DNA from: Propionibacteriales bacterium
GTDB taxonomy: Bacteria > Actinomycetota > Actinomycetes > Propionibacteriales > Nocardioidaceae
Length of the DNA: 64,000 bases
NCBI GenBank assembly: GCA_026392455.1
Contig: JAPLCB010000009.1
Location: 1 to 64,000, forward strand
Reading direction: 5' to 3'
Shown here: positions 29,763 through 39,875 of the stretch, piece after piece
How the letters are laid out: every line of letters begins with the position of its first letter
How positions within the stretch are numbered: the first letter of the stretch is position 1
Translations under genes and position numbers: made by a program
Notes under the pieces: model-generated
What the model was told of the DNA's origin: nothing
The model's input: the letters and a program-made list of their open reading frames with translations, nothing else
The model's database searches: none

Positions 29763-30017
29763 TCAGACGGCCTTCTTCTTCAGCTTGCGCCGCTCCCGCT
29801 CGGAGAGTCCGCCCCAGATGCCGAAGCGCTCGTCGTTGCCCAGGGCGTACTCCAGGCAGCTGCCGCGCACGTCGCAGGTCAGGCAGACCCGCTTCGCTTC
29901 CCGGGTGGACCCGCCCTTCTCCGGGAAGAAGGCCTCCGGGTCGGTCTGGGCGCACAGCGCACGCTCCTGCCAACCGTTCTCGTCAGCCTCGTCGTCGAGC
30001 AGATAGAGCTCCCGCAC
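29763..30017 (-). CDS. whiB2: WhiB-family iron-sulfur transcription regulator (WhiB2/WhmD type)
   Basis: The 84-residue product has the four cysteines that ligate the [4Fe-4S] cluster (C22, C45, C48, C54; the CxxCxxxxxC spacing of the family), the GIWGG turn and a basic C-terminal KLKKK that contacts DNA. WhiB2 of streptomycetes (WhiB) and mycobacteria (WhmD) controls septation and division, usually together with WhiA. The start is GTG at 30017. Position next to cofD and the large glycosyltransferase matches the mycobacterial whiB2 neighbourhood. The WhiB2 assignment rests on context and similarity. Confidence 0.9.
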   Translation of the reverse strand: MRELYLLDDEADENGWQERALCAQTDPEAFFPEKGGSTREAKRVCLTCDVRGSCLEYALGNDERFGIWGGLSERERRKLKKKAV

Positions 30018-30079: not shown

Positions 30080-30100
30080 CGACGCGAGTCGGGATTGAAA

Positions 30101-30116
30101 ATCACACTGGTGTGAT
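30101..30116. promoter_or_regulatory. Inverted repeat in the whiB2-cofD intergenic region
   Basis: ATCACAC-TG-GTGTGAT, 7-bp arms. It lies directly after TTGAAA (30095-30100) and before TTACAT, so on the plus strand it would occupy the spacer of a promoter. A likely operator; the regulator is unknown. A second inverted repeat, TACCGC-GGA-GCGGTA, lies at 30160-30174. Confidence 0.45.
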
Positions 30117-30232
30117 TACATGCCTGTCGTACCGCCTAAGTCAAGCCCTCGTCTGCTATTACCGCGGAGCGGTATCCGGTGCGAGGTCGGGGTGCACGAC
30201 GTGGGCGAGCTGCGAAGGGACACACTTCTCCC

Positions 30233-34854: not shown

Positions 34855-37830
34855 CTAGCCGATCAGCTGATAGCCGGCGAACCCGTCTGCCACCCACATC
34901 CGAGGGGCGAACCCACCAGATGTCTTCCCCGGGAGCAGATAGATCGTGCCGGTTCCCTTCTCCCTGGCCAGCAGGTCCGCGACTCCGTCGCCGTTGACGT
35001 CCCCTGCGCCCACGTAGGAGTCGTACGCCGGATCTGCTGTGCCGTTCGCCGCCCGCAGGGCGGTGCTCGGCTCGCTCCCGACCAACGGCACGAACGAGCC
35101 GTCCTTCGAGATGAACGTCGCCCCACGGGGCGACCACGCGGCGCTCCCGATCTGGTTGAACGTCCGCAGCGATGCCGGAGCAAGTACTGGGGCCTTGAAG
35201 GCCTTGAGGCCGTTGCCCGGGAAGATCGTCATCGGGCCGGTGCCGATCTTGCCCATCAGGTCCGGGTAGCCGTCCCCGGTGACGTCCCCGACCGGGGCCA
35301 ACCGGGTCACGGTCTTCCACCCGGTCCCCATCGAGCGCGGCTGGCCGAACTTCCCGTTGCCCAGACCCGGGTAGAGGACCAGCAGGTTGCCCGCCGAGGT
35401 CCGGACCATCACGTCGGCGTTGCCGTTGCGGTTCCAGTCCCCCACGCTCAGGACCTGGGTCGCAGCGGCAACGGTCAGGTTGCCGGGGAGCGGGGCGCTG
35501 AGGTTGCGGCGCCCGTTGTTCGGCACGATCACCAGGTGCCCGTCACCGTTGCGGCCGACCACGTCGGCGGCCGAGCTGCCGATCATCGGCGACATCGAGA
35601 CCTGGCTCAGGCCGGTGAGCGACCGGAACGGTCCGTAGGCGGTGCCCAGTCCCCCGGTCCCGGTGCCGGAGCGGATCCGGCTCAGGCCGGTGCCGGCGTC
35701 CCGGACGATGATGTCCGCCTTGCCGTCGCCGGACAGGTCACCCCACCCGAGGAGTGCGGTCACGGGGGCGGCCATGGCGCCGACGCGCACCGCCTTGTTC
35801 AGCGCGGTTCCGCGGGCGGCCCCGGTGAGCAGGTACAGGGTCCGGTCGCCGGAGACGGCCATCAGGTCGGGTTGCTTGTCGCCGTTGAAGTCACCGACGC
35901 CGGTGGTCCGGGTGAAGGGCCAGGAGTTGCGCAGCACCACGGGAGCGTCGAAAGTTCCGTTGCCGTTGCCCGGGTACAGCAGCAGCGCCGTGGTCTTCGC
36001 GTCGACCCCGAGGACGTCGTACGCGCCGTCGCGGTTGAAGTCACGTGCGGCGATGATCGAGGAGACCCGCTTGAACGCGGTGGTCGCGCCGATGCTCGGG
36101 CGGATCAGGTGCCCGGCGCCGTCGCCGCGGAAGACCCACGCCTGTCCGGTCTTCCGGCTCTTGGCGATGACGTCGGAGTGCTTGTCGCCGGTCAGGTCAC
36201 CGACGGCGGTGATGGTCGAGAACGCGGACCAGTTGCCCCGGTCCACGATCGCGCCGCTGTAGCTCAGGATCCCCTCGGTGGGGACCACCCGGATCGCCCC
36301 CGTGCCGGACTTGACGAGCAGATCGGCGTACGCGCTGCCGGCGACGTTGCGACCCACCGGCTTCTCGGCGCGCGGCTGGGCAACGGCGGGCGCCGGCTTC
36401 GTGGTCGGCGGCACCAGACCGCTGGGGGCCGCGATCATGGTCCGGTTCACCGGGTCGGCCGGGACCTGCGCGCCGTTCTGGATCGCCTGGGCGGCTGTGC
36501 GGATCGACGGGATCTTGGCGTAGAGGTAGCGGCCCGGGCAGGCGGTCTGACCGACGTCACGGTGACCGTTGATCGCCTGCAGGTAGCGGTCCTTGACGTA
36601 GAGCCGGGTCGCGTCGGCCCGGATGTCGTAGAGCGACAGCTTCCAGGCGAAGAGCTTCGCGTAGGCGTCCAGAACCGCCTGCGGCGGAGCGGCGACGTCG
36701 AAGTTGCCGATCGCCGACATCGCGAAGGCGTACTCGTTGTAGCCCAACGTGTGCGCTCCGACGACGGCCCGGTCGACGCCGCCGTAGCGGCCTTCCCAGA
36801 TCCGGCCGAAGCGGTCGACGAGGTAGTTGTAGCCGATGTCGGACCAGCCCCGCGACTGGGTGTGGTACGCGTAGATGCCGCGCAGCAGGGCCGGCACCTG
36901 GTCGGAGGTGTAGTTGTTCGCGTTGACCGTGTGGTGGATGAAGCCGGCCTTGACGGTGCCGTAGCGCAGCGACCCGGCGTCGCGCAGGCTCTCGTTGGCG
37001 CCCCACTGGGCCCGGGAGAAGATCGTCGGCTTGGGCGCCAGCTTCATCGCCACCGGATCCAGGTCGGCTGCGGCCCCATCCCCTAGGGCCGCAGCCTCTC
37101 CTGTTCCCCCCAGTCCTGCCGTGGAGCTGATCGGCGCGGAACTCGTCGCGTCTCGATCGTCGGCAGGGAGCAGTGCGGTGTCGATCGCGGCCGCTTCGCG
37201 CTTGACCGGTGACACGCCCGGGTCGATCACGGCGAGCTTGAGGTCGGCGGGCGCCTGCCCGTCGACGGTCTCCGCGCGCATCTGGACCTCGTCGACGTCA
37301 CCGACGATGACCGGGTCGGTTCCCGGACGGTCCGCCCGGGCAGCTTCCGCGGTGCCCGCGTCCGGTCCGTGCTCGTCGTGGTACGCAGCACTGGTCCAGC
37401 CGGACCAGTGCTCGCCGGTCCTGGTCCGGACCTGGACGGCGATGTCGTCCTCGGCCAGCTCGGTGCCGGCCTTCCAGGTGACTCCGACGGTGGCGTAGCC
37501 GCTCACCGGGGTCGGCTCGGAGACGACCGACACCGTGCGGCCCGAGCTGCTGGTCCGCGGTGCCACCTTCTTGGCGGTGGCGGTGGCCGCAGACCGGGGC
37601 GAGACCGCGACCTCACGGACCTTCGGCGTCACCGGCGCGGTCGCGACGTCGGCCTCGGGCGCGCTGACGGCCGGAGCACGCCTGATCGCGTCCGCGGCCG
37701 AGGTACCACCCTCGGGCGAGACGATCTCCAGCGTCATCACCCCAGCGGCAGACAGGCCGACCGCTGCCACGACGGCGGTAACCAGGATCTGCTGACAGAT
37801 GGTGATGTAACGAGCGCGCGTAAAACGCAT
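34855..37830 (-). CDS. Secreted PGRP-type N-acetylmuramoyl-L-alanine amidase with FG-GAP/VCBS repeats
   Basis: The 991-residue precursor has a signal peptide (about 1-33), a linker and beta-rich N-terminal part (about 100-210), then a PGRP/amidase_2 domain (about 270-450): FSRAQWGANE, GFIHHTVN, YNYLVDRFGRIWEGRYGG, GHRDVGQTACPG, giving the His/His/Cys zinc site. A run of FG-GAP-like repeats follows to the end (for example VGDLTGDKHSDVIAKSRKTG, VGDFNGDKQPDLMAVSGD), forming a probable beta-propeller. It should cut or bind peptidoglycan outside the cell. GGAG lies 8 nt before the ATG. Twin inverted repeats lie about 90-130 bp upstream. Confidence 0.93.
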   Translation of the reverse strand: MRFTRARYITICQQILVTAVVAAVGLSAAGVMTLEIVSPEGGTSAADAIRRAPAVSAPEADVATAPVTPKVREVAVSPRSAATATAKKVAPRTSSSGRTVSVVSEPTPVSGYATVGVTWKAGTELAEDDIAVQVRTRTGEHWSGWTSAAYHDEHGPDAGTAEAARADRPGTDPVIVGDVDEVQMRAETVDGQAPADLKLAVIDPGVSPVKREAAAIDTALLPADDRDATSSAPISSTAGLGGTGEAAALGDGAAADLDPVAMKLAPKPTIFSRAQWGANESLRDAGSLRYGTVKAGFIHHTVNANNYTSDQVPALLRGIYAYHTQSRGWSDIGYNYLVDRFGRIWEGRYGGVDRAVVGAHTLGYNEYAFAMSAIGNFDVAAPPQAVLDAYAKLFAWKLSLYDIRADATRLYVKDRYLQAINGHRDVGQTACPGRYLYAKIPSIRTAAQAIQNGAQVPADPVNRTMIAAPSGLVPPTTKPAPAVAQPRAEKPVGRNVAGSAYADLLVKSGTGAIRVVPTEGILSYSGAIVDRGNWSAFSTITAVGDLTGDKHSDVIAKSRKTGQAWVFRGDGAGHLIRPSIGATTAFKRVSSIIAARDFNRDGAYDVLGVDAKTTALLLYPGNGNGTFDAPVVLRNSWPFTRTTGVGDFNGDKQPDLMAVSGDRTLYLLTGAARGTALNKAVRVGAMAAPVTALLGWGDLSGDGKADIIVRDAGTGLSRIRSGTGTGGLGTAYGPFRSLTGLSQVSMSPMIGSSAADVVGRNGDGHLVIVPNNGRRNLSAPLPGNLTVAAATQVLSVGDWNRNGNADVMVRTSAGNLLVLYPGLGNGKFGQPRSMGTGWKTVTRLAPVGDVTGDGYPDLMGKIGTGPMTIFPGNGLKAFKAPVLAPASLRTFNQIGSAAWSPRGATFISKDGSFVPLVGSEPSTALRAANGTADPAYDSYVGAGDVNGDGVADLLAREKGTGTIYLLPGKTSGGFAPRMWVADGFAGYQLIG

Positions 37831-37917
37831 TGTTTTGACTCCATGTGAGGGGGGAAGTTATTCACACGAGTCCCAAGTGTCACACCAGTAACAAGCATTA
37901 GGGAAGGCATTCTTTCT

Positions 37918-37935
37918 AATTACAAACCTGTAATT
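37918..37935. promoter_or_regulatory. Operator-like inverted repeat 1 upstream of the amidase gene
   Basis: AATTACA-AACC-TGTAATT. Identical arms to repeat 2, whose centre is 22 bp away, in an AT-rich island unlike the rest of the window. Confidence 0.75.
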
Positions 37936-37939
37936 CGTG

Positions 37940-37957
37940 AATTACAACGGTGTAATT
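37940..37957. promoter_or_regulatory. Operator-like inverted repeat 2 upstream of the amidase gene
   Basis: AATTACA-ACGG-TGTAATT. Arms match repeat 1 exactly and the spacing is two helical turns. Confidence 0.75.
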
Positions 37958-37961
37958 AAAA

Positions 37962-37978
37962 TGCATTCGGGTAATGCA
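37962..37978. promoter_or_regulatory. Weaker inverted repeat 3 upstream of the amidase gene
   Basis: TGCATT-CGGGT-AATGCA. Its centre is 21.5 bp from that of repeat 2, so it continues the phase, but the arm sequence differs. The remaining 238-bp gap to the wzt stop has no gene I can support. Confidence 0.4.
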
Positions 37979-38068
37979 GAGAATATCGGTCCGGGCAGGC
38001 AGGAACTGAGGTCCTCCCCCGCGGATCCAGCGTCCCGGCGTCGTGAGACGTGGCGCTGGGGCGTCCGA

Positions 38069-38851
38069 TCAGATGTCGGCGCCCAATTCCTCGTCAGTGG
38101 TGCCCTTCTTGGCGATGTCGTCGGCATCGTCGTCGTACTGCAGGTAACGGATCCCTTCTTCGACGTCACCGTCGAAGTTCAGGTGGCCCGACTCCAGGAC
38201 CAGAACGCGGTCGCACATCGCCCGCACCGAGGCGGTGGCATGGCTGACGTAGAAGATCGTCGTGCCCGCCTGTCGGATCTCCTGCATCTTGGTGACGCAC
38301 TTCTTCTTGAACGGCCGGTCCCCCACCGCGAGCACCTCGTCGGCCAAGAAGATGTCGGCGTCGACGTGGATCGCGATCGCGAACCCCAGCCGGGCGTACA
38401 TGCCCGACGAGTAGTGCGAGACCGGGGTGTCGAGGAAGTTGCCGATCTCGGCGAAGTCCACGATCGAGTCGAACTTCGACTTGATCTCCTTCTCGCTCAT
38501 GCCGAGGATCGCGCCGTTGAGGAACAGGTTGTCGCGGCCGGACAGCTGCGGGTGGAACCCGGCCCCGGTCGCGATCAGGCCGGCGATCCGGCCACGGGTC
38601 CGGATCGTGCCGGCATCGGGCTGCATGACGCCGTTGATCAGCTTGAGCAGCGTGCTCTTGCCGCTGCCGTTGAGACCCATCAGCCCGATCGACTCGCCCT
38701 GCTCGACCGTGAACGAGACGTCGTTGATCGCCTTGAAGTTCTCCTTGATGGTCAGTCCGCGCGCCCGGGCGACCGCCATCTGCTTGAGGCCCCGCTGGTA
38801 CTGCAGGGTGAAGTCCTTGGTGACGTTGTGCACCACGATCGATTCGGTCAT
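38069..38851 (-). CDS. wzt: Polysaccharide ABC transporter ATPase Wzt-like
   Basis: The 260-residue product is an ABC ATPase with Walker A GLNGSGKST, signature SSGMYARLGFA and Walker B ADIFLADEVLAVGD, plus the H-loop VSHA. Proteins of this type, like mycobacterial Rv3781, energise export of lipid-linked galactan. The C-terminal carbohydrate-binding extension of O-antigen Wzt is absent. The ATG at 38851 overlaps the wzm stop (ATGA). It is the last gene of the glf-glfT2-wzm-wzt run. Confidence 0.88.
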   Translation of the reverse strand: MTESIVVHNVTKDFTLQYQRGLKQMAVARARGLTIKENFKAINDVSFTVEQGESIGLMGLNGSGKSTLLKLINGVMQPDAGTIRTRGRIAGLIATGAGFHPQLSGRDNLFLNGAILGMSEKEIKSKFDSIVDFAEIGNFLDTPVSHYSSGMYARLGFAIAIHVDADIFLADEVLAVGDRPFKKKCVTKMQEIRQAGTTIFYVSHATASVRAMCDRVLVLESGHLNFDGDVEEGIRYLQYDDDADDIAKKGTTDEELGADI

Positions 38852-39875
38852 CACAGACGCTCCGGGAACTTCGGCTCGAGCCGCGAGAAGAACTTCTGGG
38901 CTCCGAACAGCATCAACGAGGTGATGGCGAGCATGATCAGGCCACGCTCCCAGAGGTCGGGCGGGAAGTGGTCCGACAGCGGCGCCTTGGTGGTGTCGGT
39001 CACCGTCGGGTACCAGAAGAACCGCTGCATCAGCAGGACGGACTCGGCCAGTGGATTCGCCATGTACAGCTGGTAGATCCACGGGTGGTTGTCCTGGAGC
39101 CGCGCGATGGTCGAGTACGGGTACATCATCGGCACCATGAAGTGCAGGAACTGGGTGAAGGTCGCGACGATGTTCTGGAAGTCCTTGTAGTACACGTTCA
39201 GCGCCGAGAAGAACAGCGCCATCGCCATCGCGAAGGTCAGCAGGATCGCCAGACCCAGCAGACCCGCGGCGATCGAGGTGAAGGAGACGCCCCAGCCGAC
39301 GATCAAGCAGATCACCAGCAGGATCAGGATCTGCGGACCGGTGTGGTACATCGCGGTCACCATCGACGCGACCGGGAAGATCTCCCGCGGCATCCGCATC
39401 TTCAGCAGCAGCGCCCGGTTCTGACGCACCGACCGGGTCCCGCTGGACCAGGTCTCGGAGAAGTAGTGCACGAAGACCATGCCGGCGAAGAGGTGCAGCG
39501 CGAAGTTCGGGGTGTTGCCGCCGTGGGACTTCAGGACCACGCCGAAGACGAAGAAGTAGACGCCGAACCGCATCGCCGGCTGGATGTACGACCAGAGCAG
39601 CCCGAGCACCGAGGCGGCGTACATCTGGGCGAGCTGGCGCTGCACGATGAGCTTGAGCAGGTAGCGCTGCTGGAAGACCTCGGCGATCCCGCCGTGCGGA
39701 GCCGGGTCGACCAGCTCGGCCTCGACCACCCGCACCTGTCGCGGACCGTCAGGGGCCTCGACGACCGGCATCGCGTTGGCCTTCTTCTCCATCAGCGCCC
39801 GAGCGCGCTTTGCGGCGTTGCGACGCCGTCCGCGCTCGTCGACGTCGTCGGGTCGGGCCCGGTCGGCAGCCTTGC

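What the first reader, a model, noticed from the sequence alone, without database searches (positions are those of the whole stretch)
37918..37978. Phased AT-rich inverted repeats upstream of the secreted amidase gene
AATTACA-N4-TGTAATT occurs twice with identical arms and centres 22 bp apart, and a third, different inverted repeat follows 21.5 bp further. Two helical turns between sites is typical of cooperative dimers. The stretch is AT-rich, unlike the surrounding sequence, and the only gene reading away from it nearby is the 991-residue PGRP/FG-GAP amidase (wzt ends on the other side). I do not recognise the motif, so it could belong to an undescribed regulator of cell-wall turnover.
Basis: seen in the sequence. 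Interest (0 to 1): 0.7.

Follow-up and report, generated by a model that had tools for sequence, protein, structure and literature searches.

The report
Conserved operator for actinobacterial cell-wall enzymes
The paired DNA palindromes in front of this cell-wall-cutting enzyme gene look like a real control switch that many actinobacteria share, placed beside genes for cutting the wall, for cell division, and for a small, little-studied DNA-binding protein that is probably its reader.

Summary
Confirmed. Two perfect AATTACA-N4-TGTAATT palindromes stand 22 bp apart, 88 and 110 bp before the amidase start codon; the third inverted repeat is different and unconserved. Two or more sites precede the amidase in 20 of 23 loci (own included), spaced 22-24 bp (18 of 21 spacings) or 31-33 bp (3): near whole helical turns. 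A relaxed form, AAHNACA-N4-TGTNDTT, marks a small regulon: 60 sites in ten Nocardioides genomes, reversed control 0. Of 57 of these sites read, 56 lie beside amidase, whiB, NlpC/P60, DUF1906, SpoIID, DUF3263 or crgA. Outside the genus, DUF3263 and NlpC/P60 genes lead. DUF3263 is a ~100-aa protein family (NapA/Rv0430 belongs to it by recall). Of its 30 best-scoring loci, 29 carry the palindrome upstream. Reading: an operator array, most likely bound by DUF3263 dimers that repress their own gene and control cell-separation enzymes. Binding is inferred, not shown. Diverged families are mixed: f22 has no sites (10 of 10 genomes), but f39 keeps sites with a diverged DUF3263, and f20, f23 and part of f21 lack the own-promoter site despite a usual helix.

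The parts
37918..37935 (.). Proximal palindrome AATTACA-N4-TGTAATT, 88 bp before the amidase start codon
   Evidence: Exact match; conserved upstream of amidase orthologues
37940..37957 (.). Distal palindrome AATTACA-N4-TGTAATT, 110 bp before the amidase start codon
   Evidence: Exact match; two or more relaxed sites in 20 of 23 amidase loci, own included
37929..37946 (.). Overlapping palindrome TGTAATT-N4-AATTACA made by the inner half-sites; its gap is 4 or 5 bp or more in relatives, so probably a by-product of the phasing
37962..37978 (.). Third, different inverted repeat TGCATT-N5-AATGCA; not the same motif and not conserved as a repeat
37880..37893 (-). Second conserved promoter element TGTTACNNNTGTGA; in the 21 amidase loci with a site a TGT..C...TGTGA block lies 23-25 bp after the proximal palindrome; factor unknown
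34855..37830 (-). 991-aa N-acetylmuramoyl-L-alanine amidase (Amidase_2 plus FG-GAP repeats), the gene downstream of the array
30100..30117 (.). Single operator of the same regulon, AATCACA-N4-TGTGATT, between whiB and cofD
29763..30017 (-). whiB (84 aa, Pfam Whib), start 83 bp from the operator
38069..39082 (-). wzt-like ABC transporter ATPase upstream; its 3' end bounds the intergenic stretch (ORF as listed; the true start is probably internal)

Best explanation
The stretch is a double operator of a small, old actinobacterial regulon. SHOWN by sequence: palindromes AAHNACA-N4-TGTNDTT, far above the reversed control, sit beside cell-wall hydrolase genes (amidase, NlpC/P60, DUF1906, SpoIID; LysM and GH25 in a few cases), whiB, the 3' side of crgA and, most widely, the DUF3263 gene, which has a LytR_C-like neighbour. 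In amidase promoters two palindromes are kept about whole helical turns apart. At the amidase two dimers would bind on one face of the helix and hold the gene down (or tune it) until cell separation. Whether it represses or activates the amidase is open; I lean slightly to repression.
For: Conservation and controls: 24 of 24 genus genomes (G000-G023) have a site at up to 1 mismatch. Relaxed motif: 60 sites vs 0 control in 10 genomes; 277 vs 27 in 148 class genomes, or 264 vs 10 without the ten f29 genomes. Targets: 56 of 57 read sites in the 10 genomes fall in seven gene groups (3 not read); 43 of 56 read sites in 18 genomes outside the genus fall in these groups or beside LysM genes (1 not read) (my tally over). 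Candidate reader: DUF3263 is in 144 of 148 class genomes. Of its 30 best-scoring loci 29 have the palindrome upstream at 11-12 of 12 positions, each in 0 of 200 shuffles; the 30th (L185) begins 60 bp before the domain. The single relaxed site in G040 and in G046 is this promoter. Of 40 DUF3263 promoters with a site, 36 have ATGACA inside the left arm and 31 have TANNNT 17-19 bp on. A LytR_C-like ORF lies in 41 of 42 such loci. Family f22 has PVRYY in the recognition helix in 9 of 9 loci read, and no site in 10 of 10 genomes.
Against: No binding data. The 30 loci were the best-scoring ones; of 35 scorable loci that I picked to cover other families, only 6 reach 10 of 12 positions. Covariation is not clean: f20 and f23 (8 loci) and f35, f40 and one f7 locus keep ATRYY- or STRYY-like helices without the site in the DUF3263 promoter; in f21 three STRYY loci lack it while two with PARYY or PPRYY have it (a further f21 locus, L303, has it). 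f39 (4 loci) has diverged helices and no own-promoter site, yet keeps sites at whiB in 4 of 4 genomes. 9 of 40 DUF3263 promoters with a site have no TANNNT at 17-19 bp. whiB also carries the site and is a second autoregulation candidate. The own genome has at least two more DUF3263-like genes (one search counts 4 matches, 3 listed). NapA is described as preferring AT-rich DNA rather than a defined operator. No structure model could be made.
Confidence: 0.57

Rival explanations
1. The same operator regulon, but read by a different protein, for example WhiB (with WhiA), MtrA, or a regulator not yet considered; DUF3263 would then be just a target.
For: whiB carries the site in its own upstream region in f1, f7, f36, f39 and one f20 genome. 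f39 keeps the sites with a diverged DUF3263, and f20/f23 lack the own-promoter site. Two further conserved elements share these promoters: TGTTACNNNTGTGA and GTCAAG(C/T)CGACACGC at NlpC/P60 genes, so other factors act there.
Against: Among the sites read, DUF3263 is the DNA-binding candidate whose gene recurs most widely next to the site. WhiB/WhiA and MtrA are, from recall, conserved in Streptomyces, yet 10 of 10 f22 genomes have no site (that f22 is Streptomyces is my guess). WhiA's GACAC box and MtrA's direct repeats (both recalled) do not fit an AATTACA/TGTAATT inverted repeat.
Confidence: 0.32
2. DUF3263 binds here, but as a nucleoid protein that coats AT-rich DNA; the palindromes would be nucleation points rather than a switch.
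For: NapA is described as preferring AT-rich DNA and forming inflexible rods (passages); the array lies in a 41-48% GC island.
Against: The sites are few (5 relaxed sites in the own genome), sharply defined, often single, and at DUF3263 promoters mostly take the form AATGACA-N4-TGTNRTT set between promoter-like hexamers.
Confidence: 0.07
3. The palindromes are RNA hairpins or a terminator after wzt, or chance AT-rich repeats.
For: They lie in the wzt-amidase gap.
Against: The scan of 37700-38300 found no terminator-like site. The same palindrome stands beside unrelated genes in other contexts, and shuffles and reversed controls seldom give it.
Confidence: 0.02

Closest known systems
NapA (Rv0430) and the Rv0430-Rv0431 (VirR) putative operon
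   Same: Rv0430 as a DUF3263 protein is recalled; the order DUF3263 then LytR_C in the own genome matches Rv0430 then Rv0431, whose end resembles LytR-family proteins (passages). NapA is reported to regulate an operon with virulence genes (passages)
   Different: Described there as an AT-preferring nucleoid protein; no defined palindrome or cell-wall hydrolase/whiB regulon in the passages seen. The original paper is not held.
WalKR regulon of Firmicutes (recalled)
   Same: Half-site TGTAAT, 11-bp step, autolysin and hydrolase targets
   Different: WalR sites are direct repeats (recalled); here the half-sites are inverted with a 4-bp gap, and no WalR is invoked
MtrA of actinobacteria
   Same: Regulon includes cell-division genes (start of the abstract of PMC6265350)
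   Different: MtrA sites resemble GlnR sites (passage of PMC9045223) and are direct repeats of GTTAC type (recalled); the neighbouring TGTTACNNNTGTGA element is a better MtrA candidate than the palindromes (guess)
WhiA/WhiB division regulators (recalled)
   Same: Division genes; whiB is itself a target here
   Different: WhiA recognises GACAC (recalled), not this palindrome

Membership tests
DUF3263-controlled regulon | A DUF3263 protein is encoded in the genome | tested here: met
   PF11662, E 1.5e-37, followed by LytR_C; one search counts 4 matches in the own genome
DUF3263-controlled regulon | Site upstream of the DUF3263 gene itself | tested here: met
   Own genome C4:122199; 29 of 30 best-scoring loci, but 6 of 35 scorable loci picked from other families
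DUF3263-controlled regulon | Site and protein change together across clades | tested here: inconclusive
   f22 fits (0 sites in 10 of 10 genomes); f39, f23, f20 and f21 do not fit cleanly
DUF3263-controlled regulon | Protein binds the palindrome | not testable with these tools
   Needs a binding assay; PDB 9n2n and 9n2g hold a protein that matches the DUF3263 profile, content unknown beyond the name
WalR-type operator | Direct repeat TGTWAH-N5-TGTWAH (recalled) | tested here: not met
   Half-sites alternate in direction with a 4-bp gap
MtrA site | GTTAC-type direct repeats (recalled) | tested here: not met
   Palindromes are inverted repeats of AATTACA; the separate element TGTTACNNNTGTGA was not tested for MtrA
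Rex operator (recalled TTGTGAA-N4-TTCACAA) | Arms TTGTGAA/TTCACAA around a 4-bp gap | tested here: not met
   Arms are AATTACA/TGTAATT

The most novel reading that the evidence does not exclude
DUF3263 is a class-wide actinobacterial cell-cycle regulator with a defined operator. It controls its own LytR_C operon, whiB, crgA-side DNA, sepX-like genes, dnaA, gidB beside a parS-like site, and the hydrolases that split daughter cells, and so would link replication, division and separation in one autoregulated circuit.
Probability: 0.3. Interest if true: 0.9.

Novelty: new member of a known kind. Interest (0 to 1): 0.68.

Why it matters
How actinobacteria time the enzymes that cut the wall between daughter cells is, to my knowledge, largely open. 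A sharply defined operator, shared over many families, with a named candidate reader whose gene carries the same operator, makes that directly testable. It would also give a little-studied, near-universal family (144 of 148 class genomes), whose one described member I know of is called a nucleoid protein, a sequence-specific role.

Tried and rejected
The sigma-70 promoter and terminator scan of 37700-38300 found nothing, so the amidase promoter itself is not located. The array contains TTGTAA-17-TGTAAT, which resembles a promoter, but it lacks A at position 2 of the -10, and the spacing is not kept in the three relatives with 31-33 bp between palindromes, so I did not adopt it. The third inverted repeat was dropped as a member. 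An exact scan of genome contigs for the tandem array gave 3 records, two Nocardioides and one uncultured Marmoricola (records near the own genome may be left out there). Literature: DUF3263 gives 1 paper, on a cyanophage (listing only); Rv0430 gives 11, of which passages were read in PMC13340245, PMC3000826, PMC10665949 and PMC7177045; passages of PMC11832169 and PMC9045223 were read too; PMC6265350 was seen only as the start of its abstract. Datta et al. 2019 (NapA) is known only as cited there. PDB codes 9n2n/9n2g gave 3 unrelated papers. The listings (no paper) show nothing that describes this operator; those papers were not read except as named.

Full report
OBSERVATION. The two palindromes are exactly as reported and are part of four alternating half-sites, one every 11 bp. 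The window gives 3 matches at up to 3 mismatches, against a mean of 0.02 in shuffles. In base shuffles of the intergenic stretch, two or more 7-4-7 palindromes never occurred (0 of 3000; 3 observed). In the own genome 10 places match at up to 3 mismatches and the reversed control matches none. Two of the ten are this array. Of the other eight, six lie beside an NlpC/P60 gene, a CHAP gene, an M23/phosphatase-domain gene, whiB, DUF3263 and the 3' end of crgA; two (C3:278396 and C8:214427) have no such neighbour.

CONSERVATION AT THE AMIDASE. A match to the amidase protein is found in 37 of 39 genomes, own included (many matches outside the genus are partial). Of 23 amidase loci examined (L013-L035, own included), 21 have at least one relaxed site and 20 have two or more. 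The two without are L018, whose contig ends just upstream of the gene (sites lie on another contig of the same genome), and L034 from another genus. The 21 spacings between neighbouring sites are 22 bp (13), 23 (4), 24 (1), 31, 32 and 33 (1 each), near whole turns of the helix. In all 21 loci with a site a second block, TGT..C...TGTGA, begins 23-25 bp after the proximal palindrome. The gap of the inner, opposite palindrome varies, so the AATTACA-N4-TGTAATT unit is what is kept.

REGULON. All 24 genus genomes (G000-G023) have a site at up to 1 mismatch; over all 58 genomes searched 41 do, and the control rings in one. With the relaxed pattern AAHNACANNNNTGTNDTT, 10 Nocardioides genomes have 60 sites and 0 control sites. 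My tally of these 60: amidase 19, DUF3263 9, whiB 7, NlpC/P60 7, crgA 3' side 7, DUF1906 5, SpoIID 2, unassigned 1 (L077), not read 3. In 18 genomes outside the genus there are 57 sites and 2 control sites: DUF3263 14, NlpC/P60 11, amidase-like 7, crgA 5, DUF1906-like 4, LysM 2, unassigned 13, not read 1. In 148 genomes of the class there are 277 sites against 27 controls; leaving out the ten f29 genomes (which look AT-rich and hold 17 of the control hits) it is 264 against 10. NlpC/P60 genes lie beside sites in 4 of 5 genomes read of the remote family f23, and whiB in f7, f36 and f39. Many sites in these remote families have no assigned neighbour. The 176 unique sites are a biased pool, since many loci were fetched for their amidase or DUF3263 gene; 28 of them are unassigned there, some later placed at crgA or DUF3263.

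WHO READS IT. The most widespread target is the gene of a ~100-aa DUF3263 protein, with LytR_C next in the own genome and a LytR_C-like ORF nearby in 41 of 42 loci checked. DUF3263 occurs in 144 of 148 class genomes. Of the 30 best-scoring loci (L165-L194), 29 have the palindrome at 11 or 12 of 12 defined positions upstream, not equalled in 200 shuffles each; L185 has only 60 bp of upstream DNA. Of 38 further loci taken to cover other families, 35 could be scored and 6 have 10 or more positions; L230, not scored there, has a site. Of 40 DUF3263 promoters with a site, 36 have ATGACA inside the left arm and 31 have TANNNT 17-19 bp on, so the palindrome would cover the -35 and the spacer; 9 do not. 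This suggests autorepression. At whiB the operator overlaps TTGACT-N18-TGTAAT in the window and in L108, which fits repression too but rests on a weak -10 match. Twelve aligned DUF3263 sequences share an invariant DMS-x-TRYYQ core, like a recognition helix (the helix-turn-helix reading is mine). Two PDB entries, 9n2n and 9n2g, 'Fis family transcriptional regulator', match the profile at E 1e-41; I could not learn more about them.

LIMITS. Covariation is mixed. Family f22, with PVRYY helices in 9 of 9 loci, has no sites in 10 of 10 genomes. Family f39 has diverged proteins without own-promoter sites but keeps sites at whiB in 4 of 4 genomes. f23 and f20, f35, f40 and one f7 locus have a usual helix without own-promoter sites; in f21 three STRYY loci lack the site and two with PARYY/PPRYY have it. 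The own genome has further DUF3263-like genes with other helices. whiB remains a rival reader.

KNOWN WORK. NapA (Rv0430) is described in passages I read as a nucleoid protein preferring AT-rich DNA that regulates an operon with virulence genes (original not held); that it is a DUF3263 protein is recalled. Rv0431, its neighbour, is VirR, linked to cell-wall remodelling (passages). The operator and the hydrolase/whiB regulon were not met in the searches listed under Tried and rejected.

Noticed in passing
L008 (own genome C7 near 129835), L083, L085, L106, L110, L121, L138, L150, L151: Within about 20 bp of the crgA stop codon the palindrome is followed by TTATCCACA/GTTGTCCCCA-like repeats; in L083 and L106 two palindromes 46 bp apart flank a hairpin-like stretch. 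Purpose unknown.
   Followed up: partly
Amidase and DUF1906 promoters; window 37880-37893 (-): Element TGTTACNNNTGTGA: 7 matches in five genomes, 0 control; five at amidase promoters, one at a DUF1906 promoter, one not placed. Another factor, MtrA-like at a guess.
   Followed up: partly
NlpC/P60 promoters, e.g. L047, L075, L296, L304: The palindrome is followed within a few bases by GTCAAG(C/T)CGACACGC, seen from Nocardioides to family f23.
   Followed up: no
L266, L270 (dnaA-like genes); L272, L305 (gidB-like, beside TTTCACGTGAAAC); L162, L287, L288 (sepX-like): Sites beside replication, segregation and division genes, a few genomes each; gene names are mine from sequence, not from a family search.
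   Followed up: no
L242-L251: DUF3263 genes in ten IMG/VR viral contigs; in the nine with upstream DNA the best palindrome score is 8 of 12.
   Followed up: partly
L231 and L232 (own genome C8 near 379936, C1 near 44693): Two more DUF3263-like genes with different recognition helices; operators unknown.
   Followed up: no
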